From a virus: a stretch of DNA of 64,000 nt. The DNA lies in the IMG/VR virus record IMGVR_UViG_3300047994_000617, positions 62,001 to 126,000 of that record; one strand, 5' to 3'. The notes under the pieces are model-generated. The model was not told the origin of the DNA. It made no database searches and was given only the letters and a program-made list of their open reading frames with translations. Position 1 is the first letter of the stretch, and the number at the start of each line of letters is the position of its first letter. The translations under genes were made by a program, and so were the position numbers. This document shows, piece after piece, positions 32,016-58,095 of the stretch.

Positions 32016-35000
32016 ATGGGCGGCGAGAGCGGCAACGGGCAACCGCGGGGCGCTGGTGGCGCACCTGCACCGGCAGCGCCGACCCGCACCGGCGGGTTCG
32101 CGTCGTTGGGGCTCGCCCCGCGTCCGCCCGTGCCAGCCCCCGCTCCAGCCCCGTCGCCCGCGCCGCCCCCGCCGACCCGCACCAGCGGGTTCGCGTCGCT
32201 CGCCGGCCGCGCGCCGCCGGCTGCTCCGGGCGTTCGGGTGGCTTCTCCGGCGCCGGCGACTCCGCAGGCCCGCACCAGCGGGTTCGCGTCGCTCGCCGGC
32301 CGCGCGCCCGCTCCCCGCCCCCCGCCGCCGGCGCATCCCCCTGCTCATCCCCTGGTCCCGCCGATCACCGGGACCCCGATCGTCCGCTACGTCGGCGCCC
32401 TGCATCCCCACCTGACGGGCCTCGAAGGCCGCGTCATCACGTCGGCGAGCGGGAAAGCGACCGTGCAGTGGCGGCGCCCCGGCGGTGGCGTTCGCCTGGG
32501 GGATCGCCAAGACCCGGCGAGCTACGCGTTCGCCGAGCTCGTCGTGCTGCCGGAAGGTTACTCCGAGGGCTTCAAGAACGCCGCGGAGCGCGAGCGGGCC
32601 ACCGCGCCGGCGCCATCGGTGCGCCCCCCGTCGGCCCGTCCGGCCTCGTCGCGTGGCCCGTCGTCGCGCGAGGCGCGCGATCCGTTCGCGGAAGAGAACC
32701 CCCGCGAAGCGATCGTCCGGTACATGGGGGCCGAGCCTTACCTCCGCCAGCTCGAGGGGCGCGTGGCCCAGCGCATCGGGCACGAGATCCTCGTGCTCTG
32801 GCGGCAACGCGGCGGAGCCAGGTACGCGCTGCGCGCTGGGGAGCCGCGCTACGTGCCGTTCAAGGCGCTGCGCGTCCTCCACGGCTACAGCCCTGACTTC
32901 CGGCGCCCCGGCGAGACTTGGCCGGACAGCCAGAGCGCTCGCGGCGACATCCCTTACCTGACCGCCCTGTTCGCGGCGCTCGGGGACGAGCGCCTGGCCG
33001 AGGACGCCTACACCGCCTTCCTGGGGGCGCGCCAGTGGGGGTGGCTCGACAACAAGATCAAGATCCGCCGGGTCAAGCTCGCGCTGGACAACTCCATCGG
33101 CGAGGGAGAGCGAAGCGACAGGGCGCTTCAGGCTCTGGCCGGCGTCGACGCGGAGGGGATGAAGTGGAAGGTCGGCGCCCGGGTCACCCTCGGCGCCCGT
33201 GGCGCCTACAGGGGGCGCAGCGGGACCGTCATCGCCATCTCGCCCTTCCCCCGCTACGACAGCCGCGAGGTCGAGATCGATCCGGAGCCGGGGGACCCGG
33301 GGAAGATCGTCGAGGAGGTGCGCGTCGAGGACCTCGTGAACGGGCCCCTGGCGCCCGCGACGGGTCGCGCACAGTCCGCCGTGGGGGGCGTCGCCGCCGT
33401 CGCGCCGCCGGCCGCGGCGCCCGAGCCACCGGTCGTCCCGCCGCCCTCCCTCCATGAGGAGCCGGCCCCCGTGGCCGCGGCGCCGACGCCCGTCGTGGGT
33501 TCGATCCAGGCGCTCCGGGCGCTCCCCGTCGGCACGAGGCTCCGCCAGGTCAAGAACGTGCTGGGGACCGTCGAGCGCGGTGGCGGACGTCGGATCGAGG
33601 CGCAGAAGCCCAAGGGGATCGTCCTCAGGGTCGACGCACCGGGCACGAAGCACCACGGGGCGACGTCGGACATCACGTTCAGCAACCTGGGCAGCGTGGA
33701 GCCGCGCCCCCACGGCTTCGCGCTCTTGGACCGGAGCAAGCGGTTCCTCGCCGAGTACGTCGTGGAGGAGATCCCCCACGGGGCAGCCTCCCCCGCGCCG
33801 GCGGACGACCTGCGCGCCCGGATCGTGGCCTTCCTCCAAGGCAACCCCGAGTCCCAGATGGCCGTGATCGCCCGCGCCGTGGGAGGCCCGGACAAGCCTG
33901 GCCAGGACGCCGTGTTCGCCGAGCTCCGTGCGATGCGGGGCGAGGACGTCATCTGCCACGAGCCCAAGGACGGCCGCGGAAAGGTGTGCAGCCTGAAGGC
34001 AGCGCCCGCGGCAACCGCCCCGGCCGCGCCTCCCACACCCACGATGCCCGGCCAACCGCGCGCACACCACGTCGCGATCTACGGCGGCAAGGAAGTCGTC
34101 GTCGACTACGTGCCGGACCCCAGGCGCGAGTTCAGCGTCGCCGCGATGCGCGTCAACGACAATTTGCCCACGGGGAAAACCGGGCTCGTCGTCACGCCGA
34201 AGGGACAATACTTCCTCATCACGGAGGGTAAGCGGACCTCCCAGCTCATCGCGCCGGGAGATGTCCCCACCGCGCTCGCGAAGCACCTTCCGGGGACGAC
34301 CATGCTGCCGGCGAAAGCTGCCGAGGCGCGCGCCGACCAGGAGACGCCCGGCGCGGCGGCCGTCTCGACGCCCCAGAGGGCCGCCGAGGTGCTGCGGGCG
34401 AACCTCGCGCCGAGGTTCGCCGGGCACTACCTCGACATCACGGCCGAGCGAGGCGTCGGCATCACCGTCGCCAAGACGGCCCCGCACGAGAGGCTGGGGA
34501 TCCCCTCGTCGAGCCTGCCCTACTCGATGAGCATCGCGCCCTCGCAGTACGCCACCAACGTCCAGTGGCGCGACCTGACCGTCAAGTTCACGGGGGGCGA
34601 CGACCAAAAGGAAGCCCTAGAGGCCGCCGGCCTGACGGTGATCCGCCGGTCGAGCGACATGACGCCGGAGGCGGCCGTCGCCAAGGTGCTCGCCTGGCCC
34701 GGGTGGGAGACCCTGGTGGGGATCTACAGCGCTGGCAACCAGGCTCCCGAGCCCGCGCACACGGCACCGGCCGCACCGTTCAACCCCCTCGTCGTCGTCC
34801 ACGTCGGCGACACCCCCAAGCACCCGAAGTGGGCCGCGATCCGCGAAGCGCTCCGCGATCCGGGACCCGAGAATCGGGCGCTCGCCGCGACGCTGATCGA
34901 GGAGGTCAACAAGGATCGCCAGGCCGCGATCCGCCGGCAGATGGCCCGCGCCGCCATGGAGCACAACCGGGCCCGGCTCGAAGTCGCGGGACTCACCGTC

Positions 35001-38000
35001 GGCGAGCCGCTCGCCAGGGTGATGGCGAAGTGGATCGGCGAAGGCGTGCCGACGCCGCAGGACCTCGACGCGTGGATCGCCGAGGCGGGTCCGTGGACGC
35101 CCGAGCCGCCCCTCCCGAAGCCCGCGGCGCCCGCCTGGGATCCGGCGCGCAAGGAAAAGAACCTCCGCCCGGGGATGCGCCTCGTCCTTGAGCGCGGGGT
35201 CCACGAAAACAAGCGGACCTTTCTGTCGATGGAGCCGCACGTCCCGCGCGCAGCCGCGCCGCAGAAGAAGCGGAAGAAGGGCGACGCGCCCCCTCCTCCC
35301 TCGCAGCACGCGGCCCGCTGGAACTTCGTGTTCCGGATCGACGACATCGGCCCGAAGTACGGAGCGCTGGAGCGGATCGACGACGTGACCGTCGTCTGGG
35401 GCCCCAGGGGGTTCAAGCTGGTGAACGCCGCCGAGGTCTACGTCTTCGGGGTCGACGCGACCGAAGCCGCGCCCCCGTCGGTCGGCACCTTGCGCGCCAC
35501 GCTGACCGAAGAGCACCGGAAGGCCCGTGTCGCCTCTGAGGTCTACCACAAGGACCAAGCCGGCGACTGGCTCCACCATGTGCGGAGCATCCTCCGCACG
35601 GCGGAGGCAGGCCGCGCGGAAGACAAGGCACTCCGCGACGTCGAGGACGCGCTGGCGCTGCAGCAGGCCCCCTCGCCCAGGACGCTCGATCCGCTGCGCC
35701 TCGGGCGCCTGATCGAGGCCATGGAGGACGCCCAAGACTACGAGGGGCTCCGCGAGACCCTGATCGAAGCCCGCGAGCTGGGGGCCCACGGCGCCCCCTC
35801 CGGCCAAGCCGCCCTCTTCGTCGAGGCGAGCGCCATCGGCGACGAGCTCGGGCGGCTCAACAGGATCAAGTTCGATCCGCTGCGCGAGAAGGTCCGCAAG
35901 GCGGTGGCCCTGGCCCGCGCGCACGTCGACCGGAAGGGCCCGGCCTACGCGCAGGCACGGGATGCCCTGAAGGCCGCCATCGCCGCCTACCGGGCACGCC
36001 GCCCGGCCCAGGCGCCCGCGCTTCCCCCGGCCGAGCAGCACGCGGCCGCGCTGGTCGAGCACCAGGCCGAGGCGCTCTCCCGGAAGTTCGAGGAGAAGCC
36101 CCCCTGCGCAACCGAGGAGGGCGTGCTCGCTGCCACCGCCGGGGAGTACCGGACCGTCGAGGAGGTCTCGGGGCTGCTCGGGGGGTGCGATCCCGATCTC
36201 GTCCAGAAGGTACTCACCAAGCTCGCCGACGAGTTCAAGCTGCGGAAGACCTTCACCAAGGACAAGCCCACGCGCTGGGGGCACGACGTGCCGCCCCACC
36301 GCGAGGACTGGGCCGTCTACCGCCGCGGGGCCGACATCTACGGCGACACCTCCTTCCTGACGGCCTCGGGACAGCTCCCTGGCTTCTCCGTGAAGCACCT
36401 CGGCATGGGGGAGTTCGTGCTCAACACCCCCAGGGGCGAGGTCGAGTTCGACCGGATGCGCGGGGTCGACTTCCCGGGGCAGACGGGGCGCTCCCACCTG
36501 CTCTACGCCACCCAGAACCCCGAGGCGCTCGCGCTCCTGCTGAAGGAGATGCGCGTCGACGAGCGGCTGGCAGAGGAGGCAGCCCAGCAGCCTGCCGCGA
36601 CGGCAGCCCAGCAGCCTGCTACGCTTACAGCCCAGCAGCCTGCTACGCCGGCAGCTCAGCAGCCTGCTGCCGGCGCGCCGGCCTCCGAACAAGCGGGGAG
36701 GCCGGGCTCTGCGCGGGAGGCCGCGGCTGCGCCGCACCGGCTCACCATGGCCGAGAAGGCCGCGGATCTCTGGGCAGCGTTCACGCCCAGCGAGCGCGCC
36801 GCGGTGGCGGCGGGGGGGATCTTCCCCGCCAAGCCGATGGAGCAGGCGGCGCGGGAGGGCTACGCCGGCCGGGAGCTGACCGTGGCCCTCATGGACCACG
36901 CCAAGCAGCAGAAGAGCGCCGAGCGGCAGGCACCCCACGGCAAGCCCGAGGGGAGGCCCGATCGGGTCCGCGCCGCGCTTCAGGAGACCTCCCAGCGCGT
37001 GGAGGCGGCCCGGAAGCCGACCACCGAGGCCGTGTCCTCCGCCGCCGGCGAGGCACGCGCCATCCAAGCCGCCGAGGACGCCGGCACCGTCTCGCCCGCC
37101 GCCATGGCCGGCGTGAAGCTCTCGTCCCCGCCCAACCCGGACGACGAGGCCGTCTCCGACATCTACGCGCCGGTCGAGCACCGGACGGCCGCTGCCCGCC
37201 GCGACGCGAACATCAAGGCCATGTGGCTCGCCTCGGACCTCGAGGCGCGCCCCCGGCCGCTCACCAACGACGACCGCCTGGTGCTCGCCGCCTACTCGGA
37301 CTGGGGCGGCCTCGGGATCGAGAAGGCGGCGAGGAAGTTCCCGCCGGGCTTCCCGGTGCCGGAGAAGCGCCAGCTCATCCACGCCTACTTCACGCCGCCC
37401 TTCGTGTGCTCGGAGATCGCGCGCGTCACGCGGCCGTTGATCGCCGGCCTCGACGGGAAAGAGGAGGGGCGCATCCACGCCCTGGAGCCGTCCCTTGGCA
37501 TCGGTCGCTTCCCCCTCGCCTTCTCGGGCCCGGGCTTCGAGGCCCTGTCCTGGCATGGGGTCGAATACTCCAAGCTCAGCTTCAAGATGGTCCGCGCCCT
37601 GCGGCCGGACATGGACCTCTACCAGGGTCCCTTCGAGAGCTGGGTCACCGAGAAGGGGCCCGAGTTCCAGGGGCGGCTGCGCCTTGTGGTGAGCAACCCG
37701 CCCTACGGCGAGCGCGGCCCTGCCTACACCAAGGATCCGGATCGGAGCTACCGCGAGATTCGCGCGGACAACTACTTCCTCCGCCGTGGGCTCGATCTCC
37801 TCGGCGCCGGCGGGCTCGGGATCTACATCATCCCATCGGGCTTCCTCACCGGCAAGACCGCCGACGCCCGCAAGATCCGCGAGCAGGTGCTGCGCCGCCA
37901 CCATCTGTCGGCGGCCTTCCGGCTCCCCAACGAGGTGTTCAGCCTCGCCAATGTCGTCACCGACATCCTCTTCTTCCGCGCCCGCGGCGGCATCCTGGAG

Positions 38001-41000
38001 AAGGTCGACGAGGCGGACCAGTTCATCCTCGACGGCAAATACTACGAGGCGTTCACGGACCACATCCTCGGTACGGTGGTCCCGAACCCGCCCCCCGAAC
38101 CTGGGCAAGAGGGCAAGCGGCAGTGGCACACGAGCGCCGAGGGCTACACGGTCGTCGGCGAGTTCAAGGGGCTGCCTCCCGAACTCGAGGAGCGGCCGAT
38201 GTGCGCCGCATGCGTGCACATGACGCCGGCGCCGGCGGCGGCCAAGCCGCGCAAGGCCGACAAGCCCCTCGGGCCCCCGCCGACGGCGGCGGAGGCGATG
38301 GTCGAGAACGATGAGCGCATGGCGGCCGCCGTCGGCCTCGGGCGCCGCGTCGAGAAGTTCCTGGCAACCGTTGCCAACCCCGACGTCGAGCCCGTGGGCT
38401 GGGAGGAGCTCCACGACGACCTGACCCAGTGGGGCGCCAAGCATGGTCCGCCTGCGGCCGACAAGCCCGTCCTGGCGCTGGCCAAGGCCGAGCGCGGGCC
38501 GCTCGGCCAGGGGGCCCCTGGGGGCGCAGGCTGGCTCCTCAAGGCGTTCCTCGGCAAGTCGGCGACCCTGATCGAGCCCCTGGCTGAGAAGCCCTCGTGG
38601 ATGCCCCGGTACACCGGCAACCCCCACGACCCGCTTCAGGTGGGGGAGTACCTCTTCCGGAACAAGAAGGCGCTCACCATCGGCGAGCTGCCCGGCAAGG
38701 ACGCCGCTCCGCTCTTCGCCGCCGGGTGGTGCGAGGACTCGACGGCGCCGGCGTGGGTCGAGCGCCTGGACTTCCGCGGGAACCTCTACCCGCCGGACGA
38801 TTACATGTTCGGGGAGCTGTGGCCGCGGCTCGACCGGGCGAGGGCCCGCGCCGCTCTCGGCGACACTCAGGCCGCCGCCCAGGCGACGCGGCTCCTGGAG
38901 GCGATCCAGCCGGCAACCTTCGACGAGATCGAGGTGAGCCCCCAGGACGGCTTCGTGCCGCTCGACGTGCTCGGGGAGTGGCTGGACACGATCAACCACG
39001 GACACGACGCGCTCACCCTCGTCCGCGCGGACGGCATCGTCCACATGGCCGGCGTCCCTTACGACGAGCACCTCCCGGGCATCTCGGGGCTCTCGGACGT
39101 TGCGCTGATGTGCCTCGGCTGGATCAACCACGACTACGTGGTCTTCAAGCCGTCTGCCAAGGACGATGACGCTCAGCAGATCGACGCGGATCGACTCATG
39201 TACGCGCGCGAATGGACCGAGAAGTTCCGGGCCTGGCTTGACGCGCGCCCGAAGCCCCAGCGCGCCGTCGAGAATGCCTACCAGCGGGCCCGGCAGGGCT
39301 ACCGGCAACACGCCTACGGAAGCGCGCCCCTCCGGCTCGCCCGCTGGAACCCGGCCGTCGTTCTGAACCCCCACCAGATCGCCGGGGCTCGCCGGGTCAA
39401 CGCAAACAGGGCCGGCGGTCTTGGCTTCCAGGTCGGCGTCGGCAAGACCTACACGATCCTGGCCGCCCTGGCGCTCGCACGACAGGAAGGGCGGGCGCGC
39501 CGGCCCGTCATCTGCGCGCCCCAGAAGATCGCCTTCCAGTGGATGGCGAACATCAAGAAGGCGCTCCCCGACTTCCGCGTCGTCGTCATCGGCATCAACA
39601 AGACGAAGAAAAAGACCGGGGAGGACTCCAGCGACACGGACTCCCCGGAGGAGCGCAGCCGCAAGTGGGCCCGCTTCATGGGCGGGGAGTTCGACGTCGC
39701 CGTCGTCACCTACGATTCGTTGCCTCGCACACTGATGGACGAGGAGTCCACCCTCAAGTTCGTGGAGGGCGTGACCGCCATCGAGCGCGAGGTCGCGCTC
39801 CGCGCGCGGAACGCCAAGAAATCGGTAAAGGGCGAGCTGAAGAGGTACGCGGAGGAGAAGGGCGTCATCGATCGGAGGATCAAAAAGCTCGAGGCCACGA
39901 TTGAGAACCTCACGGACGCCACATGGCCATCGGCGAGGCCGAAGCTCGCGAAGGCTCGCCAGGACCTCGCGGTGGCCCAGGCGAAGCTGGAGGTCCTCGA
40001 CAAGAAACACCTCGGGTCGCTGACCGAGCGCCAGGACGCGATCCTGGAAGAGACCGTCGGCAGGTTCATCGCGGAGATGACCGAGCTCCCGGGCACATGG
40101 AAGCCGGACCCCGACATCATCTGGAACAAGATCGGCGTCGATTGGATCGCCTTCGACGAGGCGCACAACGGCAAGAACCTGCACATGCCGGCCGACCGCG
40201 AGGGCGGCAGCGTGCCCAAGTACATGGGCAACGCGGGCGACGGATCGAAGCGCGCATGGCACTGGTTCTTCCGGTGCTGCGACGTCCAGTCCCGCGGCGG
40301 CGAGGTCGTGCTGGCGACCGCGACGCCGGCCTCCAACAGCCCATTGGAGTTCTACAACCTCGTCAAGCTGATGGACAAGGACGCCTGGACCCGGATCGGG
40401 ATCTACGATCCAGAGGCGTTCATCGACAGGTTCTGCATCCTCCAGATCGAGGAGGTCATGAACGCCGAGATGGAGGTCGAGCAGCGCTTGGCCTGTGTCG
40501 GCTTCAAGAACGCGGACGAGCTCCGCTCGGTCATCTACCGGCTCTGGGAGTTCAAGACGGCCAAGCAGGCAGGTCTCAAGCTCCCCGCGGTGACGCAGGA
40601 GCGCGTCTTCGTCGACATGGATGCCGCCCAGGAGCAGAAGTACGTCGATTACGTCAAGGCCATCGAGGACGAGCTCTCCAAACCCAAGATCCCGGGCCAG
40701 AAGAGCGGCAAGATCCTCGGCCTGCTCGCCCGCATGGCGATGGTGTCCATGCACAGCCAGCTCGACGAGGGCTTCAAGTGGAAGACCGCGGGCGCCGTCG
40801 ACAACCCGCACTCGCCGAAGTTCGACGCGCTCGCCAACAACATCCTCAAGATGCCCCACTGCGGGCACATCGTCTTCGCCGACTACATCGCGGCCCACGC
40901 ATGGATCCGCGACGTGCTCGTCGAGGCCGGCATCCCCGCCGATCGCATCGGCATCCTGAACGCCGTGGTTGCGCCGAAGGCGGCCGACCGCCTGCGCATC

Positions 41001-42299
41001 GCCCGGGAGTTCAACGGCGATGCGGCCGCGGGGATCCCGCCGAAGTACGACGTCCTCATCTCCAACGAGATCGGCGAGGAGGGCGTGGACCTCCAGGATC
41101 GCACCTGCGCGATCCACCAGCTCGACGTGGGCTGGACGCCGAAGAAGAACGACCAGCGCATCGGACGCGGGGTGCGCCAGGGCAACACGCTCAGCAACAT
41201 CCACCTCTACTACTACCTCGCCAACCGCAGCCAGGACGGCGTGCGGCTCGACATGGTGCAGGGGAAGCAGAACTGGATCGACAGCCTGCTCGAGGGGAAC
41301 GCCAGCGTGGTCGCCAACACGGCCGCCCAGTCGACCCTCTCCCGCAAGGACCTCCTGGTGCTCATCTCCCGCGACCCGGAGGCCACCAGGAAAGCCTTCG
41401 AGGCGGCCGAGGCCGAGGCCGAGGAGAAGCGCAAGGTCAAGGTCGCCAAGGTGGCCACGGACACGCTGCGGGCCGCCGCCAGCCGCTTCGAGCGCGCACG
41501 CACCGAGACGGACCAGGCCACCGCCACGGAGCTCCTCTCCGCCGCCCGGCAGAAGCTCGCGGGCCTCGCCAAGGTCCCGCCGGACGTCTGGCCCTGGGCA
41601 GGCTGGGCGCAGGCTGCGGAGCAGGCCCCGATGCTGGTCCCGAAGGAGCCGGGCGCCCCCGTCTACGAGGGCCTCCAGGTCGCCATGCCCAAGATGCTCG
41701 ACCGGAGCGTGATCGAGTGCTCCGAGTTCGGGCGAATCGACGGCTCCGACATCGGCAGCCGCTTCGCCGGCGCCGCGCACTGGGAGAAGGTCTCGGCCGA
41801 AAAGGTCTCCCACCTCCATCTTGAGCCCCCGATGCGGATCGCCGAGGGCAGCGGCACGCCCTGGCCGGCGGACGACCAGGCCGGCATCGACAAGGCCATG
41901 CAGGACCGATGGCTCGACCGGCTCCGCCACGGCGCCGGCGCGGCCGACGCCTGGCGTGCCCTCGGCTGGGTGTACGGGCCCTCCCGCTGGGTCGAGGCGC
42001 AGTGGTCGCGATGGGGACGCGACGTCGTGGCCGCGCTGGCGAGCACCGGCGGCTGGGCCCAGAACCTCCAGATCCCGGCGCTGCGGAGAGGGCTGCTCGT
42101 CCAGGGCCTCACGCCGCCGTTCAGCGACGTGCTCCCGCCGACCGATGCCGGGTACGAGGAGTTCCTGCGGATCGCGCCGATGGCGGGGCTCAAGTTCACG
42201 GAGCTGGAGAACATCGCCGTGTTCTGGTGGAACCGCGGGATCCCCCGGACCCTGCTCTCGGCGGGCCGCGACGCACAGCCACAGTCGAGGGCCGCATGA
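32016..42299 (+). CDS. Giant N6-adenine methylase-like / SNF2-type helicase (DarB-like), 3427 aa
   Basis: The N-terminal 100 residues hold three tags (RTGGFASLG, RTSGFASLAGR twice) in Pro/Ala linker. KOW/SH3-like modules appear at about 123-160, 234-270 and 386-425. Ala/Pro linkers and helical regions follow. A DNA methylase domain at about 1700-2020 has SNPPYGERGP (about 1892). A helicase of the SNF2/DEAD superfamily follows with GVGKTY (about 2475), FDEAHNG (about 2711), ATATPASNSP, and a C-terminal lobe with GEEGVDLQ (about 3019) and QRIGRGVRQGN (about 3046). Methylase-helicase fusions of this kind are known from phage P1 DarB and many plasmids, where they protect incoming DNA from restriction. 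All key motifs are intact. The length is far above the usual 1700-2300 aa. Confidence 0.85.
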   Translation: MGGESGNGQPRGAGGAPAPAAPTRTGGFASLGLAPRPPVPAPAPAPSPAPPPPTRTSGFASLAGRAPPAAPGVRVASPAPATPQARTSGFASLAGRAPAPRPPPPAHPPAHPLVPPITGTPIVRYVGALHPHLTGLEGRVITSASGKATVQWRRPGGGVRLGDRQDPASYAFAELVVLPEGYSEGFKNAAERERATAPAPSVRPPSARPASSRGPSSREARDPFAEENPREAIVRYMGAEPYLRQLEGRVAQRIGHEILVLWRQRGGARYALRAGEPRYVPFKALRVLHGYSPDFRRPGETWPDSQSARGDIPYLTALFAALGDERLAEDAYTAFLGARQWGWLDNKIKIRRVKLALDNSIGEGERSDRALQALAGVDAEGMKWKVGARVTLGARGAYRGRSGTVIAISPFPRYDSREVEIDPEPGDPGKIVEEVRVEDLVNGPLAPATGRAQSAVGGVAAVAPPAAAPEPPVVPPPSLHEEPAPVAAAPTPVVGSIQALRALPVGTRLRQVKNVLGTVERGGGRRIEAQKPKGIVLRVDAPGTKHHGATSDITFSNLGSVEPRPHGFALLDRSKRFLAEYVVEEIPHGAASPAPADDLRARIVAFLQGNPESQMAVIARAVGGPDKPGQDAVFAELRAMRGEDVICHEPKDGRGKVCSLKAAPAATAPAAPPTPTMPGQPRAHHVAIYGGKEVVVDYVPDPRREFSVAAMRVNDNLPTGKTGLVVTPKGQYFLITEGKRTSQLIAPGDVPTALAKHLPGTTMLPAKAAEARADQETPGAAAVSTPQRAAEVLRANLAPRFAGHYLDITAERGVGITVAKTAPHERLGIPSSSLPYSMSIAPSQYATNVQWRDLTVKFTGGDDQKEALEAAGLTVIRRSSDMTPEAAVAKVLAWPGWETLVGIYSAGNQAPEPAHTAPAAPFNPLVVVHVGDTPKHPKWAAIREALRDPGPENRALAATLIEEVNKDRQAAIRRQMARAAMEHNRARLEVAGLTVGEPLARVMAKWIGEGVPTPQDLDAWIAEAGPWTPEPPLPKPAAPAWDPARKEKNLRPGMRLVLERGVHENKRTFLSMEPHVPRAAAPQKKRKKGDAPPPPSQHAARWNFVFRIDDIGPKYGALERIDDVTVVWGPRGFKLVNAAEVYVFGVDATEAAPPSVGTLRATLTEEHRKARVASEVYHKDQAGDWLHHVRSILRTAEAGRAEDKALRDVEDALALQQAPSPRTLDPLRLGRLIEAMEDAQDYEGLRETLIEARELGAHGAPSGQAALFVEASAIGDELGRLNRIKFDPLREKVRKAVALARAHVDRKGPAYAQARDALKAAIAAYRARRPAQAPALPPAEQHAAALVEHQAEALSRKFEEKPPCATEEGVLAATAGEYRTVEEVSGLLGGCDPDLVQKVLTKLADEFKLRKTFTKDKPTRWGHDVPPHREDWAVYRRGADIYGDTSFLTASGQLPGFSVKHLGMGEFVLNTPRGEVEFDRMRGVDFPGQTGRSHLLYATQNPEALALLLKEMRVDERLAEEAAQQPAATAAQQPATLTAQQPATPAAQQPAAGAPASEQAGRPGSAREAAAAPHRLTMAEKAADLWAAFTPSERAAVAAGGIFPAKPMEQAAREGYAGRELTVALMDHAKQQKSAERQAPHGKPEGRPDRVRAALQETSQRVEAARKPTTEAVSSAAGEARAIQAAEDAGTVSPAAMAGVKLSSPPNPDDEAVSDIYAPVEHRTAAARRDANIKAMWLASDLEARPRPLTNDDRLVLAAYSDWGGLGIEKAARKFPPGFPVPEKRQLIHAYFTPPFVCSEIARVTRPLIAGLDGKEEGRIHALEPSLGIGRFPLAFSGPGFEALSWHGVEYSKLSFKMVRALRPDMDLYQGPFESWVTEKGPEFQGRLRLVVSNPPYGERGPAYTKDPDRSYREIRADNYFLRRGLDLLGAGGLGIYIIPSGFLTGKTADARKIREQVLRRHHLSAAFRLPNEVFSLANVVTDILFFRARGGILEKVDEADQFILDGKYYEAFTDHILGTVVPNPPPEPGQEGKRQWHTSAEGYTVVGEFKGLPPELEERPMCAACVHMTPAPAAAKPRKADKPLGPPPTAAEAMVENDERMAAAVGLGRRVEKFLATVANPDVEPVGWEELHDDLTQWGAKHGPPAADKPVLALAKAERGPLGQGAPGGAGWLLKAFLGKSATLIEPLAEKPSWMPRYTGNPHDPLQVGEYLFRNKKALTIGELPGKDAAPLFAAGWCEDSTAPAWVERLDFRGNLYPPDDYMFGELWPRLDRARARAALGDTQAAAQATRLLEAIQPATFDEIEVSPQDGFVPLDVLGEWLDTINHGHDALTLVRADGIVHMAGVPYDEHLPGISGLSDVALMCLGWINHDYVVFKPSAKDDDAQQIDADRLMYAREWTEKFRAWLDARPKPQRAVENAYQRARQGYRQHAYGSAPLRLARWNPAVVLNPHQIAGARRVNANRAGGLGFQVGVGKTYTILAALALARQEGRARRPVICAPQKIAFQWMANIKKALPDFRVVVIGINKTKKKTGEDSSDTDSPEERSRKWARFMGGEFDVAVVTYDSLPRTLMDEESTLKFVEGVTAIEREVALRARNAKKSVKGELKRYAEEKGVIDRRIKKLEATIENLTDATWPSARPKLAKARQDLAVAQAKLEVLDKKHLGSLTERQDAILEETVGRFIAEMTELPGTWKPDPDIIWNKIGVDWIAFDEAHNGKNLHMPADREGGSVPKYMGNAGDGSKRAWHWFFRCCDVQSRGGEVVLATATPASNSPLEFYNLVKLMDKDAWTRIGIYDPEAFIDRFCILQIEEVMNAEMEVEQRLACVGFKNADELRSVIYRLWEFKTAKQAGLKLPAVTQERVFVDMDAAQEQKYVDYVKAIEDELSKPKIPGQKSGKILGLLARMAMVSMHSQLDEGFKWKTAGAVDNPHSPKFDALANNILKMPHCGHIVFADYIAAHAWIRDVLVEAGIPADRIGILNAVVAPKAADRLRIAREFNGDAAAGIPPKYDVLISNEIGEEGVDLQDRTCAIHQLDVGWTPKKNDQRIGRGVRQGNTLSNIHLYYYLANRSQDGVRLDMVQGKQNWIDSLLEGNASVVANTAAQSTLSRKDLLVLISRDPEATRKAFEAAEAEAEEKRKVKVAKVATDTLRAAASRFERARTETDQATATELLSAARQKLAGLAKVPPDVWPWAGWAQAAEQAPMLVPKEPGAPVYEGLQVAMPKMLDRSVIECSEFGRIDGSDIGSRFAGAAHWEKVSAEKVSHLHLEPPMRIAEGSGTPWPADDQAGIDKAMQDRWLDRLRHGAGAADAWRALGWVYGPSRWVEAQWSRWGRDVVAALASTGGWAQNLQIPALRRGLLVQGLTPPFSDVLPPTDAGYEEFLRIAPMAGLKFTELENIAVFWWNRGIPRTLLSAGRDAQPQSRAA

Positions 42300-43222: not shown

Positions 43223-43953
43223 AGGGCCCCCGGTTCGCGATCCACACCCGCGACGGTGAGGCCGTCTCGGTCGTCACGGCCCGGAACGAGACGGCGGCTT
43301 GGAATAAGCTCGCCCACCAACAAGGCCTCGGCGACGCCAGGCGCGCCGACGCCATGGCACCAGGCTGGCGGGACCGCTTTGTCGTGACGGACACGCGGGA
43401 CCTACACACATGGAGGATCGTCACGACGAAGGGCGCGCAGAACATGGGGGCGTTCCTGGCGCGCACGGCGGCGAGCGCGCTGGACGTGCTGGCCCACAAG
43501 CAGCGCTTCCGGAGCGCCAAGCATGCGGAGGCCCACGAGGCCGGCTGGGCCAAGCGCTACCGGGTTGCGCTTGAGACCGTAGCCGGTGGCCAGGGGGCCG
43601 CGAACGACAGTCGCGTATCGGCAGCAGACTCCGACGTCGAGGACTTCGCCGTGTTCAAGGATGTCGCGACGGGCTGGGGTCCTCCCAAATGGGAGCGCGT
43701 CGGCACGGTGTCAGCCGCCACCCCCGACGATGCCGCGATCGCTGCCAGGTCCCGCTGGTCGGCGGAGGATTCGCTGATGCTTCGGCCGCTCGGGAAGCCT
43801 CAATACGGCACCTTCCGCATCTTCCGGGGTCGCGCGGACCTCGGAGTTTTCGGAGGACGCGACGAGGCCGGGGCGCTCGACGTCGCAGTGCGGGCGGGGA
43901 CGATCAAGCGGGGCGAGCGCGGGCTCCGGGTGGTGCAGGAGCGGACCAGATGA
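43219..43953 (+). CDS. Unknown protein with repeated small domains and FGG-type module
   Basis: 244 aa, coupled by ATGA at both ends. Residues about 1-55 and 60-115 look like two copies of one small alpha/beta unit (AAWNKLAHQQGLGDARRADA / ALDVLAHKQRFRSAKHAEA, each followed by GW and a basic pair). The C-terminus carries the FGG module (FRIFRGRADLGVFGGRD, ALDVAVRAGTIKRGERGL). No enzyme motif is present. Modular repeats suggest a scaffold or binding protein acting with its neighbours. Confidence 0.6.
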   Translation: MKGPRFAIHTRDGEAVSVVTARNETAAWNKLAHQQGLGDARRADAMAPGWRDRFVVTDTRDLHTWRIVTTKGAQNMGAFLARTAASALDVLAHKQRFRSAKHAEAHEAGWAKRYRVALETVAGGQGAANDSRVSAADSDVEDFAVFKDVATGWGPPKWERVGTVSAATPDDAAIAARSRWSAEDSLMLRPLGKPQYGTFRIFRGRADLGVFGGRDEAGALDVAVRAGTIKRGERGLRVVQERTR

Positions 43954-46900
43954 CGAGCGCCAGACAGATCCGAGGCTCCGCCTTCATGGCCTCCCTCCCC
44001 CCGGGAGGGGATCCCACCTCCATCCGGGAGCGGGAGGCCCTCGTCCTCGATGCCGTCCGCCGGGGGATCGCCCAACCCATCACCTGGGCGCCGGTGAAGA
44101 CCCAGATCCCCGGCCATACGGGGGTCGTCTACGTCGCCACCGACACCCTCCGCTTCGGGGTGCCCGGGCCCACGAGCACGAGTCTCGTCGCGCCAGCGGA
44201 CCGCCGCGAATGGGCAGGCGAGCCCGGTGACTGGAACTGGGTACGGATCGCCGTCACCGCCGACACGGCCCAGAAGATCGCCGACCAACTCGGCGTGCTC
44301 CTGCCCACGGACAAGATCCTCGACTTGGCGCACGCCCAGGCGGACGTCCACCTCACCCCCCACGTCCAGATGAACGTCACCGCCACCACGGAGGGGATGC
44401 TTCAGCACCACGTTGCCATCGAGGCCGAGCGGGCCGGACGCGAGGGGTTGATCTCGACGATCGGCAAGGACTGGATCCTCGGCAACGAACTCTGCCCGCC
44501 GCCCTGGGGCGGGCCTCCGGCGCACCCGCTGGGTTACGACGGGGCGATCAACTACGGCTGGCACACCGACCAGGCCCCGACCCGGAACGGCCCCTACGTG
44601 GCCCAGCCGGGCATCGTGGTGTGGCAGAGCCGGGGCCTCCGGCACAACCGCGGGCACGTCGACTACAGCCAGTGGGTCCCGCGGTTCGTGGCGCCGTGGA
44701 TGGAGGTCGACGGCCAGCGGGTGAGTACCGCGGACGTGATGCAGTCCAAGGAGCTGGCGGGCCTCGTGAGCTACGAGGGGCCGCTGCGGTCGGTCCGGCT
44801 GCCGGACGCCCCCTCCCGCAAGCTCCAGAACCGGACAGCGCGCCCGGGAGCGGGGGAGCGGCCGGCGCCCGAGGCGGCGGACCCCTTCGACGCCCTGGAA
44901 GCGGGCGCCCCAAGCCCCACGCCCGACACGTTCTACAGGAGCGCCAACGGCGACGTATGGATCGGCACGATCGAAGACGGCATGTTCCGCTGGAACGCGG
45001 CCGCGGTCTTCAAGCCGCCGCGCGAGAAGACGCTGCCGGGGCATGCTTACCGCATCGGGCCGCTCCGCGACTGCGGCGAGGGCGAATGCACTTTCGATCT
45101 GCTCGAGGACCTGGAGCTGGTGCCCGTCCACGGAACCGACATCGACACCAGCGGGGCGTCCCAGGAAGCCCCTTCGCCACCAACCGGCTCTGGTCTCTGT
45201 GACCCCTTCGCCGATTACCGCGCCGAGCACCCCGAAAGCGGCGTCAACGCCTTCGGTCTCGCCTTGTTCGCCAGGATCCGGAGGGCGCCCGGCAATCTCG
45301 CGTTCTCGCCGGCCTCGATCTGGACGGCCCTCGCGATGCCCTTTGCCGGCGCGCGCGGTGAGACCGCGGAGCAGATGGCGCGGACGCTCGACGACCATCG
45401 GACGAGCCGCGAGATCGTGCCCGCCGCCGGCGTGGTCGTCTCCCGCATCAACGAGCCCCGCCCCGGCACGACAATCCGCCTCGCCAGCCGCCTCTTCGGC
45501 GCCCAGGGCTACCCCTTCCAGCCCGCCTACCTGAGGCTCACCCGGGAGACCTTCGGGGCCCCGCTCGAGCCCGTCGACTTCGGAGCCGCCGAAGCGGCCC
45601 GCGCGCGCATCAACGGGTGGGTCGCCGAGCAGACCGAGGACCGGATCAAGGACCTCCTGCCCGAAGGCAGCGTCGACAGCCTCACGCGCCTCGTGCTCGT
45701 CAACGCGATCTACTTCCTCGGCAAGTGGGCGGCGCCCTTCGAGGCCACCGGGACCCGCCCCGCGCCCTTCCACGCCAGCCCCACGGACGTCCGCCAGGTG
45801 CCGACGATGGCGCAGACCCTCCACTGCCGCTTCGCCGACGTCGCCGGCGTGAAGCTGGCGGAGCTGCCCTACCGCAACAACGACCTCGCCATGCTCCTCG
45901 TCCTCCCCGCGGAGGTGGACGGCCTCGCCGCCCTCGAGGCCCGGCTCTCCCCAGCGGTCCTCGCCGACTGGGTAGGCGCGCTCTCCGAGGCCCGCGTCCG
46001 CGTCCGGCTGCCGAAGTTCGAGATCGCCCCCGAGGGCTTCTCCCTCGGCGCCGCGCTCAAGGCCCTGGGGATGCCGCTCGCGTTCGACCCGGCCCGGGCC
46101 GACTTCACAGGCATCGCCGAACCCACGAGCTCCACCGAGCGGCTCTTCCTGTCCGACGTCTTCCACAAGGCGTTCGTCAAGGTGGACGAGGAGGGGACAG
46201 AGGCCGCGGCGGCGACGGCGATCGTGGCGAAGGCGGTGTCGATGGATCCGCGGCCCGAGGCGGACTTCAACGCCGACCACCCCTTCCTGTTCTTCCTGAG
46301 GGACACGAATACGGGGATGGTGCTCTTCATGGGCCGCGTCAGCGACCCGGCCGCCAGCGCCCCCGGCACGCGCGATGCCGGCGAGCCGCTTTTGCTGGGT
46401 CCCACCGATCCCTCTTTCGACTTGGCGGAGACCGGCGCGCCCGAGGCCGGGTCCAAGGTGATCGACCTCGGCGACCACATCCTCCGGTTCGTCAATTCGT
46501 TCCGCGATGCGAAGTTCCTGGGGATCACTTTCCCCGGCCAGTGCGGCGGGATGGCCTCCACCGTCCTCGACTACTTCTTCGCCGACCGCCCAGCGCCGAC
46601 CGGCAGGACGACGCCTCCCGTGAGCGATCCGCTCGGCGCCTACATCCAGGGCCGCCAGCAAGACTCTCTCCTCTTCGGCGGGAACATCGCGCACTTCGCC
46701 AAGATGCTCGTCAACCCCGACGACGCGGACATCGCGCGGCAGTCGGCAGCCTCTTTCGCCGAGGTCCGGCGCGCCATCGACGCGGGGAAGCCCGTGCTCC
46801 TCGGGCTCATCCCCCATCCGTGGTCGCTCGACCCAAGGAAAGTCACGCGCGCACACCAGGTCGTGGCGCACGGGTACATGGTCGGCGACGACGGGGGCCG

Positions 46901-49900
46901 CTCGGTACTCATCTGGGACCCGAACCGGCCGCTCGTGAGCGGCAACTACCTCTACCAGGCCGCAGGCACGCTGCACTGGATCGAGCCCGCGACGCCCACG
47001 CTCCGCTCGGTGGAGTGGCGGGGGTTCTTCGTCGAAGCGGGCTACGTGCCCAGGGATCCACCGAAAGTCGAGGAGATGATGGCCACGAACGATGCCGGTG
47101 CGCCCGCGGACCCCTTCACGGCGCTCGACGCGGCCGACCCACTCGACGTGCTCCAGGAGAAGGTGCTCGACCCGCTCCACGAGGCCGCGAAGGGGACGTG
47201 GTTGGAGAACGTGCGGACGGCCCAACGCGACTACCTGAAGAGCACCTGGGTCGCCGACACGAAGCTCGGCGACTTCCTCCGCCTCAACGATCCGCCTCCG
47301 CCGGCGCCCCCGGCGATCCCCGCCGAGGGCGCGACGTTCGAGCTCTACCCGAAGCCCCTGAAGCTCAGCCCCGAGGCCGGCGATCCCGCAGCGGAGCCCG
47401 AGCCGAGCCGCACCGACGTGCTCCTCGAGGTCCTCCGGATGCGCCGAGAGCGGCACGTCGCGCCCTTCTCCAGTTGCAACATCACCGGCGCCGAGTGGAG
47501 CGAGGCGGAGGCCCGGGCGCGCGCCGCAGCGGCGAGGGCGCGGAGCAACCTCGACGCTGGCAACCTCGACCTCGACGCCGGCGACGCCCAGGGGGACCAG
47601 GCGCTCGCCGCGGCGGGCAAGGGGGCGGGGATCGGCGCGGCGGTGGGGACGGTGCTCGAAGCCGTGCCGGTCGTCGGCCCTCTGCTCCACGTCGTCGCAG
47701 TCGTCGTCGGGGCCATCGCCGGGGCCATCGCGGGCGCCACGATGGACACCTTCCATCTGGAGACGCCGGTCGTCGCCGCCGGCCTCGTGGTCGCGATGCA
47801 CGTCCTGCCGAACCTGCTTTTCAGCGGGATCGACACGGTGACCGTCGACAACGGCACCAACAAGCATCCGCCCGAGGAGCACGCGGCGCGCCTGGCCCGA
47901 TACCTCCTGCTCTGCATGGGCGCCGTCCCGAACTCCTGGAAGCTCTACAACCCGAACGACTTCCACAGCCACGACAACCCGTACATGGAAGCGGTCGATC
48001 CCCGCTTCCCCCTCACCGATCCCCGCTACGACGCGCGGATCAAGGCGGCCGTGTCCCGGGGCATCCTCCTGCCGCCGGACGTGTCGACGCCAGCCCAGGC
48101 GCAGGCGCTGCTCCTCGCGTTCCGCGCGATCCTGGCACCCTCCAAGCTCCTCCAGTGGAGCCAGGTGCAGGCCCACCTCCCCCAGCTCCGCCGCAACATC
48201 CAGCACCTCCGCGCCCTCGCCGGCGAGACGGGCGACGACCCGGAGCTCCGCATCGCGCTCGGGGGCGACGTCCAGCCGCACTTCTTCTACCCGCACGGGA
48301 CCCACGTGGCTCCGCGGCACGTCCAGGCGCCTCGGCCCGCGCCGGCGGCACCGCGCCCGATCCTTCGTCTTCCGGCCCCCCGGCGCCCCCTCGCGCCGGC
48401 GCCGCCCGATCCCTTCAGGGATCTCCGACCCCAGCCAGAGACCAGGAGCCCCACGATGACCACGGACGCACCGGAGGACCCCTTCCAGACGCTCACCGAC
48501 GCGGGCGCACCCGCGGATGCCGGTGAAGCAGGCGCTCCTCCCGAACCGTGGAGACTAAAGGACCCGACGTGGCGTCCCGTCGTGGTGCGCGAGGCGACCG
48601 CGGCGGACCTGCACCAACAGGGCTGGCTCCCCGCGTATTCAAAGGGCGCCAAGGTCTTCGCCGTGCCTCCTGGGGTGGGCGGCGGATGGGTCGACCTGGG
48701 GGGTCGAACCGCGGTCGGGTACTATTTCTCGCCGCAAGAACCGTGGCGCGGCGCCTCCGTGGGGGACAGCCCGCCCGGTGAGATCCTCCCGGCGATCACC
48801 AACGGATCGGTCTCCGGGTACCCCGTCGACTCGCGCGACTGGAGTCAGGGGATCCTCGGAGAAGCCGGCACCTGGACCTACTTCCGGTTCAAGGAAAACC
48901 GCCGCATTCCTCTCGCCTCCGGGATCCGAGACGTGGCGCGCGCCGACGCGACGACGCGCGAGAACTACGGCAGCTTCACCGAGCCGATCACGATCTACCG
49001 CGTGCCAGCCGACGGCACCGGGGAGTGGGTCGTGGTCTTCACGAACCGGAACTGGAAGTACGACCGCTACCGCTACGACCGCGACGCGTGGATGCACTTC
49101 GACAGGACGCTCGCCAGCGGCGTGCCCGAGGGCGAGGCGGAGGCGCGCGACCGCCAGATCCAGGGCGACGAGCGCCGAATGGGGGAGCCCAACGTCGTCG
49201 TCCTGCGCACGCCGAGCGACGACTGGATGGAGCACCGCTTCGTGTGGGACACGAAGCAGGGCGGCGTGCCGGAGCCGGGGAGCGGCGCGTACGGCATGGC
49301 GCCGGGCGCGCCGAAGCGGAGCGAGACCGCAGGCGCCGAGGGCGGGGGCGAGCCTAGCTCCTTCGCCGGCGGCTCTCTGGTGTCGATCTGGCACCCCACC
49401 GATCAGCGCTGGCAGGACGTCGCCCGCACCCAGCCCGGCCCGCGGGGCGCAGACCTCGCCACCGACGTCGGCACCCTCTGCGCCAAGGCGCTCTCCGTCC
49501 GGTTCCCGGGCCCCCTCTTCGTCCAGGTGATCCGCCGCACGCCGGGCTCCCGGGGCGTCACCCTGCTCGTCGCGCGCGACGGGCAGGCCACGGCGCAGGA
49601 GTTCCCCGCCGGGGGCGTGGAGCCCTCCTGGCCGGGCTGGACGCGGGCCTCCGGCGTGGCGCCCACCCGTCCACGCCCCGGCCGCTACGACGGCGACGGG
49701 GACACGTTCGCCTCGAGCTCGACCGTCTCGATGTGGATCGCCCGAGGTGGCACCTGGGAGGACCTCGCCGAGGCGCTCCCGCACCGAGACGTCGACATCG
49801 GCAGCCTCCTCGCCAAGCACGTCGTCCATTCGACCGCGCAGAAGTCGACCCGCACCGCCCGCGCCCGCTGCGTGCGGCGAGGCGCCGATGGGGCGCCGAT

Positions 49901-52900
49901 GGAGACGACCCTCTTCGCCTGCCGGCCCGGCGGCGACGTCCACGCGGAGCGGTTCTCCGCCGGCGAGGCGCCGAGCTGGGCGCGGCTCCCCGAAGGCGAC
50001 ACGGGCGGACCAGAGGCCGAGGGCACTCCCGGCAACCCGGCGGACTTCATCGGCGGCGGGATCGTATCGCTCTGGATCCCCCAGGCGGGGCGCTGGGAAG
50101 ACGTCGCTCGCACCAAGCCTGGAGCTCGGGGCGCCGGCCTCGCCCAGGAGCTCGGCGCCCACCTGCTCGGCGTGCTCGCGCAGACCGTGCCCGGTGAGCC
50201 CGTGTTCGGGGTGGTCGTCCAACGCGACGCCGCCCAGAAGGGCATGCTGCTCTTCGCCAAGGCCCGCGGCGGCGCGATCGCGGGCGAGTGGTTCCCCGCC
50301 GGGAGCGCACCGCACTGGCCGTGGTGGGCGCAGGAAGCCCGTCTCGCGCCCCCGCCGCGATCGGCCGCCTACCAGGGCGACGCCGACATCTTCGAGCACG
50401 GCTCGCTCGTCTCGCTCTTCAACCGCGCGGCGGGCGCGTGGGAGGACCTCGCCGAGTCCCGTCGCACGGGGCCGTTCGACCTGAGCCCGGAGATCGCCGG
50501 GTTCATGGCCCGCGACTTCGCGGACCGGGCGCAGCTCGCCGGCCTCGCCCGCTACGTGAAGCGCGACCCGCGCACATGGACGGGGACCGTCCTCGTGGCC
50601 TGCGGTCCCGGCGGCAAGCCCCGGGAGGAGCACTTCCCGACGGGGACGACGCCCACCTGGGGGAAGCTGCTCTCGGCGGGGGAGACCGGAAAGGCGGCCG
50701 AGGCCGGCGGCCCGGCCGAACCGAGCGCCGGGCCGAACCTCTACGTCCGGCCCACGCGGGGTCTCGATCGCGCGCAGCGACGGCGCGGGGCCCGCGCGGC
50801 ATGGACGCTCTCCGAGTACGTGCGCTCGCTTCCAGGTGCTGCGGAGTGGTTCAACAACGTCTTTCCCGTCGTGATGCCACGCAGGCCCGAGAGCGATCAG
50901 GAGAGCATCGTCCTGGAAGCGCTCGCCTACGAGGGCAAGCCCATCGGCAGCGCGGTACCTGAGCAGTGGATGGGCTTCAAGGTCGTGCCGAAGAACTGGA
51001 CGATCGACGCTGTGCGCCAGTTGGGCCGGGGCGTTGACCTCGGCATGATGAACGCGAACGGCACGTTCCAGGCCATCCGGGGCAGTGATGTGAAGGGCTA
51101 CATGGACGTGCCGCGCGGCATGGTGTCGGGGCACGCCTACCGCATCCGTCCGCTGTCCGTTGAGTGGCAGCCTGGGGAGCGCATCGAGATCGTCGAAGAC
51201 CTCGGGATTAGGCCGATCCATGCCGGGAACGAGTTCGACGACTGGGACGTCATCATCGGCACCGACCCCGATGCGGACGCGGGCGCTCCCCCTGGCGCCA
51301 TCGAGCGCGAGCTCACCCGAGAGATCGCCGCCAACCTCGCCCTCTGGTGCCGCGCCTGGCCGGTGGCCTGCGACCCCGAGGACTTCGGCACGCCGGCCGA
51401 CCTGCGGGGCCTGTGGACGATCCGCGGTGCGAAGGCGCTCCGGAGCTTCCAGGAGTGGTTCAACGATCGCGCGCGCGCCTCGGTGCTGCCGGTCGACGGC
51501 ATCCGGTGGCCCGGCACGACCAGGGCGCTCGCGGCCTGGGCGTCGGGCGCGAGCGGCGAGGCTGGCGATCCGCTCGACACGCTGCAAGCTGGGCTGCTCG
51601 ATCCTCTGCACAAGTTCGCCGAGGAAGCCGCCCCGGAGATCGAGCAGGCGCGGCAGGCCCAACGGAACTACCTGAAGGGCACCTGGGTCAGGGACTCGGC
51701 GCTCGGGAGGTTCCTGCGCCTCGACGTCCCCGATCCCGTGACACCCGTCACGCTGACCCCGGAGCCTCCGCCGTCCTACCCGGTCGTGCCGGTGCCGTCG
51801 CGAGCGAAGCCCCCGCGCCGGGCGCCGAGCGGATCGCCACCCCTGCGCGCGCCGCAGACCATCCTGACCCCGGAAGCCAGCAAGCGGAACGCCTTCCTCG
51901 CGGACGTGGGCGCGCTCCCGGCAGACCCCTTCGAGGACATCCTCGACGTCGGCGACATCGATCCAGCCCAGTGCGCCGCGCTGGCGACCCTGCTCGCCCA
52001 GCTCGATCGCCGGTTCCCGTTCCGGGGAAAGGGCCCGCTCGACGGGCTCGCGGAGACCGATCAGGGCGTGCCCTACCTCCGAGTGACCGGCGATCCCGGT
52101 CGCACCGTCGGCGGGACGCGCACCGGGCCCGACCTCCGGGCGCTGAAGCGCGCGGTGATGGGCGATCCCCGTGCGGAGCAAGCCTACGAGGCGGTCGAGG
52201 ACGGCGCCCGCTACCTGGTCGTCGTCGCCAAGCCGCTCCCGGCTCGCCGCCAGGACCCTTCCGCCTGGGATCTGGGCGCGCTCGCTCCGCGCGGCGAGGC
52301 ATCCGGCGCGGGCAGTGGTGAGACGGGCGACGAGGCGGGCTTCCCCTGGGTAGCGGTCGGTGTTCTCGCGCTGATCGGACATTTCATCGCGCGATCCTTC
52401 CCTCCCACGGACGACAAGGCCGAGGCGATCAACGCGTACCGGGCTGCCGTCGCGAAGGGGCTCACGGACCAGCAACTCGGCGAGGCAACGCCCAAGCTCC
52501 TCGCCAACCTGGGTGGCCGGGCAGGGTGCGAGAACATTCTCGACGCCATCGAAGGGACGCGAACGCCGGACAGCCTTACGGACCAGAACCAGCGCTCGAC
52601 CTACAACATCCTGAGCGGAGCGTTTCGTGGGGGCGAACCGGGCGATCTGATGCGCTCGATCTTCCGGGACCTCGGCGGCGCGCCCGGGGCGCGCAAGCTC
52701 CTCGCGGCGCTCTACAGCGGTGGCCCGACGGCCGATCTCACGCCCCTTGGCCAGCGGGTCGCCCGCACGGTCGGCAGCAAGATGCGCGCGGAGCACGGCG
52801 ACGCGAGCGGTCCCCTCGAACCCTGGGGAGCAGCGTTCGAGCTCGTCCATCAGGTGGACCGTCTCTGGCCGAACAGGTCGCGGATCCACGACGGCGTGTG

Positions 52901-55742: not shown

Positions 55743-55745
55743 TGG

Positions 55746-57793: not shown

Positions 57794-58095
57794 AGGACGT
57801 CGACCGAGAGGCACCGACCCCGCGAGAGAGCGCGACGTGGGAGTTCCAGAGGGGGGTCGCCAAGGGGCTTTCCCAGCAACTGCAGGACGAAGAGATCCGG
57901 CTCGGGAAGGTGTCCCCGTCGCTCGATACCGGCCGGGCCAACATGCTGCGCTACCAGCGCATGGTGGTCGACCACTATGCCGCGCTCTTCGAGCGCGAGG
58001 TGCGCCCGGGCGCGCCCGGGATGGGCGCGCGAGACCGCAGCGAGTTCTCCGCGCTCGTCCGCCTGGTGCAGGCGTTGCTGGAGCCGCGCGCGTGA
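57790..58095 (+). CDS. Helical 101-aa protein, unknown
   Basis: 101 aa, ATGA-coupled to the Nudix gene and GTGA-coupled to the next gene. Almost entirely helical and charged (GVAKGLSQQLQDEEIRLGK, MVVDHYAALFEREV). There is no tag. It may be a small subunit or adaptor for the neighbouring enzymes. Confidence 0.6.
   Translation: MKDVDREAPTPRESATWEFQRGVAKGLSQQLQDEEIRLGKVSPSLDTGRANMLRYQRMVVDHYAALFEREVRPGAPGMGARDRSEFSALVRLVQALLEPRA

What the first reader, a model, noticed from the sequence alone, without database searches (positions are those of the whole stretch)
45207..46365. A complete inhibitory-type serpin inside a giant phage-like protein
Residues about 419-805 of the 3198-aa protein form a full serpin, with the C-terminal signature FNADHPFLFFLRDTNTG and a hinge EEGTEAAAATA that fits the P17-P9 rule for inhibitory serpins. 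Counting from the hinge, P1-P1' would be Val-Ser, suggesting an elastase- or subtilisin-like target. Bacterial serpins exist, but to my knowledge a serpin embedded in a multi-domain mobile-element protein beside a papain-like protease is unusual. Predatory myxobacteria secrete many proteases, so the serpin could shield a virion or injected protein from host or prey proteases.
Basis: partly seen in the sequence, partly recalled or inferred. Interest (0 to 1): 0.84.

Follow-up and report, generated by a model that had tools for sequence, protein, structure and literature searches.

The report
Protease-trap domain inside giant phage protein
A virus of soil myxobacteria carries, built into one of its giant proteins, a complete copy of a bacterial "mousetrap" protease inhibitor (a serpin), a kind of inhibitor almost unknown in viruses of bacteria, which may protect the virus from its host's protein-cutting enzymes.

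Summary
Residues 420-805 of a 3198-aa protein (window 43950-53546, +) are a complete serpin: Pfam E=1.2e-104 over the whole model, AlphaFold2 pLDDT 88.5 with the reactive loop disordered, PDB Foldseek hits all serpins, 65 of 67 strongly conserved positions kept, and every hinge rule for inhibitory serpins met. Counting from the hinge gives Val763-Ser764 as P1-P1', a prediction only.

The window lies in a 128.6-kb IMG/VR record. The serpin's nearest kin are Myxococcota serpins (best 53-54%). The same Polyangia genome that holds them also holds fragments of a close relative of this virus, whose gene after DarB lacks a serpin, so the serpin was probably captured.

No serpin was found in cultured phages and no paper on phage serpins turned up. 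Two other IMG/VR phage-like contigs carry small standalone serpins, so the embedding is the unusual part. The host protein also has a domain fused to cell-wall amidases elsewhere, and modules shared with proteins beside a candidate capsid gene. Best reading: a captured suicide inhibitor tethered to an envelope-acting viral protein that blocks host serine proteases. Fold and inhibitory competence are well supported; target, site of action and virion location are inferred.

The parts
43950..53546 (+). P0001, 3198-aa modular viral protein that contains the serpin; start ATG overlaps stop of upstream gene
44025..44816 (+). N-terminal domain (res ~26-289), shared with Polyangiaceae proteins that carry PG_binding_1 + Amidase_2, with phage-contig proteins, and with the 682-aa gene of a relative virus
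45207..46364 (+). Complete serpin domain (res 420-805)
   Evidence: Pfam PF00079 E=1.2e-104; AF2 pLDDT 88.5, pTM 0.88; Foldseek PDB
46188..46220 (+). Reactive-centre-loop hinge EEGTEAAAATA (res 747-757, P17-P7)
46236..46241 (+). Predicted P1-P1' bond Val763-Ser764 (by counting; untested)
46266..46316 (+). C-terminal serpin signature FNADHPFLFFLRDTNTG (res 773-789)
46512..46949 (+). C39-like/papain-fold cysteine peptidase candidate (res ~855-1000; Cys865, His969/974)
   Evidence: Pfam PF13529 E=6.7e-5, just under cut-off
47601..47735 (+). Glycine-rich hydrophobic segment (res ~1218-1262), possible membrane segment; similar kind of segment in the relative's 682-aa protein
   Evidence: sequence; weak phrog_594 hit at 1193-1262
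49368..50669 (+). Four-copy VS(I/M/L)W repeat (res 1807-2240)
51324..51530 (+). Module (res 2459-2527) shared with g061, a protein of the capsid-region cluster
51969..53483 (+). Three degenerate copies of a module shared with g067 475-605 (res 2674-, 2963-, 3077-)
32016..42299 (+). P0002, 3427-aa DarB-like (methylase + helicase) anti-restriction protein upstream

Best explanation
P0001 is a modular, cell-envelope-acting protein of a large virus of Polyangia (myxobacteria). Into it a myxobacterial serpin was captured, without its lipoprotein signal, as a working suicide inhibitor. When a serine protease cuts the exposed loop (predicted at Val763-Ser764), the loop should insert into sheet A as strand 4A and trap the protease as an acyl-enzyme. 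The rest of P0001 would stay attached through the C-terminal serpin strands, so the protease is disarmed while bound to the viral protein. This would protect P0001 and its neighbours from host envelope or secreted proteases during entry or lysis. Shown: serpin fold, intact hinge and conserved core positions, native embedding in the viral protein, Myxococcota kinship. Inferred: inhibition, target, envelope location, protective role.
For: Whole-model Pfam match; PDB hits; AF2 model with only the loop and the C-terminal tail below pLDDT 50, and Foldseek TM 0.80-0.87 to solved serpins, many of them inhibitory. 65 of 67 positions that are at least 90% conserved in 48 other serpins are kept, loop length 23 in a range of 18-26. 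Hinge E-E-G-T-x-A-A-A-A-T as in inhibitory serpins. Quick tree places it among Myxococcota serpins with moderate support (SH-aLRT 80-92, none starred), nearest 53-54%. The same genome (G207) holds those serpins and fragments of a relative of this virus with DarB 67-69% identical. Envelope setting: N-terminal domain fused to PG_binding_1 + Amidase_2 in Polyangiaceae, and in a phage contig where that linkage is my reading of the sequence (L145); modules shared with g061 and with g067 (SpoIID + SGNH). GC3 of the serpin is close to the rest of the ORF (0.95 vs 0.89-0.92). Host-type serpins have lipoprotein-like leaders (own reading), consistent with periplasmic or surface targets.
Against: No signal peptide or secretion route is evident on P0001, so envelope exposure needs virion delivery or lysis. 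No biochemical or virion proteomic data. P1 may be off by a few residues. Serpins can act as substrates or have non-inhibitory roles. Only one copy of this architecture was found, so conservation of the fusion cannot be tested; G207 was searched with only a 1000-aa part of P0001 behind the serpin (empty).
Confidence: 0.5

Rival explanations
1. P0001 is a polyprotein: (E/D)(T/A)G sites between modules are cut by a viral maturation protease or by the in-cis C39-like peptidase, and the serpin works as a free protein.
For: [ED][TA]G is enriched in P0001 (25 vs 7.7 expected, 0 of 100 shuffles) and in g061 (15 vs 6.4) but not in DarB (5 vs 6.4), and many sites lie at module boundaries, e.g. GTRDAG-EP at 809 right after the serpin. 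C39 peptidases cleave after small residues at GG/GA (established knowledge).
Against: Acidic, Ala/Gly/Pro-rich linkers would give the same enrichment; no strict site just before the serpin; C39 match is borderline; shuffling ignores that linkers have biased composition.
Confidence: 0.15
2. The serpin regulates a viral protease (the neighbouring C39-like domain or a maturation protease), not a host enzyme.
For: Serpin and C39-like domain are adjacent; cross-class serpins that inhibit papain-like enzymes exist (SERPINB3 is among the PDB hits; its cross-class activity is from own knowledge).
Against: No Trypsin_2-type serine protease in the contig; reactive loop holds no (E/D)(T/A)G; a one-shot suicide inhibitor fixed 1:1 beside a protease would simply kill it.
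Confidence: 0.1
3. The serpin is a non-inhibitory passenger or binding module.
For: Some prokaryotic serpins are thought non-inhibitory (a Streptomyces clade, PMC8233489).
Against: All hinge rules met and 65/67 conserved positions kept although the nearest relative is only 54% identical, which implies maintained function of the loop-insertion machinery.
Confidence: 0.12
4. It acts on prey or competitor proteases outside the cell after lysis, for the benefit of lysogens or the predator group.
For: Myxobacteria secrete many proteases (established); serine recombinase near the contig end (own reading) and chromosomal copies of the core gene set in Polyangia are compatible with lysogeny.
Against: Nothing links P0001 to secretion; fusion to wall-acting modules favours the viral particle or lysis.
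Confidence: 0.08
5. Assembly chimera joining a bacterial serpin gene into a viral ORF.
For: Metagenome contig; reads not available.
Against: In frame on both sides, linkers of the viral type on both sides (DPF, DAGEP, ETGAP), similar GC3, no leader left, and closest serpins only 54% identical.
Confidence: 0.03

Closest known systems
Chloropin (PDB 8gxv, Chlorobium limicola serpin; PMC10090351)
   Same: Best solved sequence match (E=9.7e-76); same hinge type (EKGTEAAAATA) and same loop length in the alignment; experimentally inhibits serine proteases, P1 Arg
   Different: Standalone cellular protein; P1 Arg versus predicted Val; DNA-accelerated inhibition not tested here
Lipoprotein-like serpins of Polyangia (L140 7488-8831, 8893-10284, 10331-11617; L014-L016)
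   Same: Closest sequences (47-54%), same part of the tree
   Different: Single-domain proteins with lipoprotein-like leaders; the viral copy is internal and lacks a leader; loop sequences differ after P7
Poxvirus, baculovirus and giant-virus serpins (BFVD hits)
   Same: Virus-borne serpins
   Different: Viruses of eukaryotes; 10-32% identity; none shown as part of a giant multi-domain phage protein
Standalone serpins in phage-like IMG/VR contigs L094 (136 kb) and L096 (22 kb)
   Same: Serpin without signal peptide in a contig with phage genes
   Different: 337 and 360 aa, single domain, 42-45% GC, not placed with the Myxococcota serpins in the tree
Phage protease inhibitors lambda CIII (FtsH; PMC1838920) and T4 PinA (Lon)
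   Same: Phage proteins that block host proteases
   Different: Small, unrelated, target cytoplasmic AAA proteases

Membership tests
Serpin superfamily (PF00079, MEROPS I4) | Full-length match to the family profile | tested here: met
   positions 3-370 of 370, 351 bits vs cut-off 27
Serpin superfamily (PF00079, MEROPS I4) | Serpin fold with central sheet A | tested here: met
   AF2 pLDDT 88.5, pTM 0.88; Foldseek PDB E=1.3e-38, TM 0.86
Serpin superfamily (PF00079, MEROPS I4) | C-terminal signature of the PROSITE type | tested here: met
   FNADHPFLFFL, res 773-783; pattern recalled from own knowledge
Inhibitory serpins | Hinge P17 E, P15 G, P14 T/S, P12-P9 small, P8 T/S | tested here: met
   EEGTEAAAATA; alignments
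Inhibitory serpins | Metastable native state and loop insertion on cleavage | not testable with these tools
   needs stability and cleavage assays
Inhibitory serpins | SDS-stable covalent complex with a target protease | not testable with these tools
   needs expression and assay
Peptidase C39-like (PF13529) | Profile match over cut-off with Cys/His/Asp(Asn) | tested here: inconclusive
   23.9 bits vs 24.0; QCGG, H and DPN visible
Virion / entry protein of a phage | Encoded by a virus, shares modules with capsid-region proteins, found in particles | tested here: inconclusive
   shared modules with g061, g067; no capsid family recognised; no proteomics

The most novel reading that the evidence does not exclude
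A virion-borne serpin: the first protease-trapping counter-defence known in a virus of bacteria, delivered as one module of a (perhaps self-processing) giant envelope protein. It would imply that host serine proteases are an antiviral barrier in myxobacteria, and that host lipoprotein serpins and viral serpins share targets.
Probability: 0.15. Interest if true: 0.85.

Novelty: new variant of a known kind. Interest (0 to 1): 0.63.

Why it matters
[quoted passage not shown] A serpin kept intact inside a viral protein gives a concrete, testable setting: a virus in conflict with host proteases. It would add a new class to phage counter-defences and show a serpin working as an internal module, where trapping would tie the protease to a giant partner. 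It also points to a little-known group of viruses whose core genes sit in several copies in Polyangia chromosomes.

Tried and rejected
Close-relative scans of IMG/VR with the serpin, the capsid candidate g064 and the C-terminal 2367 aa of P0001: no relatives. tblastn of 2998 aa of P0001 against phages and plasmids: the hits listed cover only the serpin; the two phage hits are unannotated faecal contigs whose serpins carry lipoprotein-like leaders, so likely bacterial genes. L095 and L151 from IMG/VR have serpins with signal-peptide-like leaders, L151 in chromosome-like surroundings, and were set aside. Two genome-search runs with long queries gave no answer (45, 48). 'Serpin' with 'prophage' or 'phage genome' in papers: in the two papers opened the hit was the author name Serpini. 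AF2 of the N-terminal domain was poor (pLDDT 54) and was not searched. The careful serpin tree did not finish; the quick one is used.

Full report
WHAT WAS CHECKED. The window is positions 62001-126000 of a 128,625-bp IMG/VR virus record, possibly a fragment. The gene runs from ATG 43950 to the stop at 53546, 3198 aa. Its ATG overlaps the stop of the gene before it. Residues 432-800 match Pfam PF00079 over the whole model, 351 bits, E=1.2e-104. It is the only serpin in the record. Chance is not an issue.

IS IT AN INTACT, INHIBITORY-TYPE SERPIN? AlphaFold2 with 48 relatives gives pLDDT 88.5 and pTM 0.88. The segments below pLDDT 50 are residues 337-349 of the 395-residue construct, which is the reactive loop, and the C-terminal tail. 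All 50 PDB matches listed are serpin structures, with TM to the query about 0.80-0.87, including 8gxv chloropin. Of 67 columns that are at least 90% conserved in 48 other serpins (46 from genomes of bacteria and archaea, two from phage-like contigs), the query keeps 65; the two changes are N to S and I to L. The loop has 23 residues between hinge and signature, inside the 18-26 range. The hinge EEGTEAAAATA meets the inhibitory consensus. Counting from P17 (Glu747) gives P1 Val763 and P1' Ser764. P1 by counting is a lead, not a measurement: loops of the nearest relatives have quite different residues there.

WHOSE SERPIN IS IT? Adding Polyangia genomes found through the virus's own genes brought closer ones, 53-54%. 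In the quick ML tree the viral serpin lies among Myxococcota serpins (one Rhodocyclaceae MAG sequence is also in the group), with SH-aLRT of 80-92 and no starred set around it, so its exact place is uncertain. All seven Polyangia genomes that carry the capsid-region gene g064 have at least one chromosomal serpin, and G207 has six. The three in tandem in G207 look like lipoproteins (own reading of the leaders). The viral copy has no leader and is internal, whereas in the relatives examined the serpin is the C-terminal or only domain, apart from two planctomycete ORFs with 101 and 165 extra residues behind it.

IS THE PROTEIN VIRAL, AND WHAT IS IT? The record encodes a DnaB helicase and an FtsK-type ATPase, a DarB-like methylase-helicase of 3427 aa, and a GH25 endolysin-like protein. 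g064 has homologues in 7 of 290 genomes of the class, up to six in one genome. Around them the genes g058, g019, g061, g062, g064 and g067 recur in the same neighbourhood. No capsid, portal or terminase family was convincingly recognised, so the virus type is unsettled. In G207, contigs C49, C50 and C188 hold pieces of a closer relative: g064 end, g065, g066, g067, DarB at 67-69%, then a 682-aa gene. By tblastn that gene shares with P0001 only the N-terminal domain (44% over 104 aa); it has no serpin. The serpin is therefore a lineage-specific addition as far as these data go, with the caution that the relative is in fragments.

The N-terminal domain of P0001 (res ~26-289) occurs in Polyangiaceae proteins with PG_binding_1 and Amidase_2. 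It also occurs in five IMG/VR contigs of 75-362 kb, one of which (L145) shows the same amidase-type arrangement by eye. Later modules of P0001 are shared with g061 and g067, the latter having SpoIID and SGNH domains. P0001 also has a Gly-rich hydrophobic segment and several internal repeats. Together this points to a protein that works at the cell envelope. Whether it is in the particle is not shown.

HOW IT MOST LIKELY WORKS. By the established serpin mechanism, a serine protease attacks the loop, the loop inserts into sheet A, and the enzyme is trapped as an acyl-enzyme. In P0001 the cut would split the chain after about residue 763, but the 2400-aa remainder would stay attached by the C-terminal strands of the serpin. 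One viral protein could thus disarm one protease. The likely targets are host envelope or secreted serine proteases, with P1 Val suggesting enzymes that like small aliphatic residues (elastase-like, alpha-lytic type). That last step is inference. No Trypsin_2-type protease is in the record, which argues mildly against a viral target; other protease families were not searched one by one.

PRIOR ART. tblastn found serpin-like stretches in 2 of 50,697 phage records, both unannotated faecal contigs with leader-bearing serpins. Named BFVD structural matches are all from viruses of eukaryotes; some rows have no name. Paper searches found no description of a phage serpin; the library lacks most subscription journals, and only a few of the papers were opened. 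IMG/VR does hold two other phage-like contigs, L094 and L096, with standalone serpins without leaders. So phage serpins are rare, not unique. The embedding in a giant modular protein was seen only here.

LIMITS. One metagenome contig, no reads. The tree is a quick one. Pattern-based scans of IMG/VR miss divergent serpins.

Noticed in passing
window 32016-42299 (three copies near the N-terminus), 54837-60982 (g099, g100, g101, g103, g104): A short motif R-(L/T)-(A/S)-G-F-A-(L/S)-L (e.g. MTSARLAGFALLG) recurs at the ends of a DarB-like protein, a LigT-type phosphoesterase, a NUDIX protein, two PAPS-reductase-like proteins and a DUF6884 protein. It may be a tag that sorts a set of injected counter-defence proteins into the particle. 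P0001 begins MTSARQIRGSAFMASL, perhaps a worn form.
   Followed up: partly
P0001 (43950-53546) and g061 (G000:C1:52360-58647): [ED][TA]G tripeptides are enriched in these two giant proteins and often lie at module boundaries: processing sites or linkers.
   Followed up: partly
L113, L116, L118-L121, L111-L112: A gene set g058 (transglutaminase-like), g019 (ATPase), g061, g062, g064, g067 (SpoIID) is present in several copies per genome in some Polyangia: a provirus-like family of unknown capsid type.
   Followed up: partly
L094 (9983-10996), L096 (9983-11065): Standalone, leaderless serpins in phage-like contigs near RNA ligase genes.
   Followed up: partly
L140 7488-11617: Three serpin genes in tandem, each with a lipoprotein-like leader and a different reactive loop, in one Polyangia genome.
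   Followed up: no
window 63561-63648 (-) and G000:C1:127501-128268: A tRNA-Gly and, beyond the window, a serine-recombinase-like gene near the right end of the contig: possible integration end.
   Followed up: no
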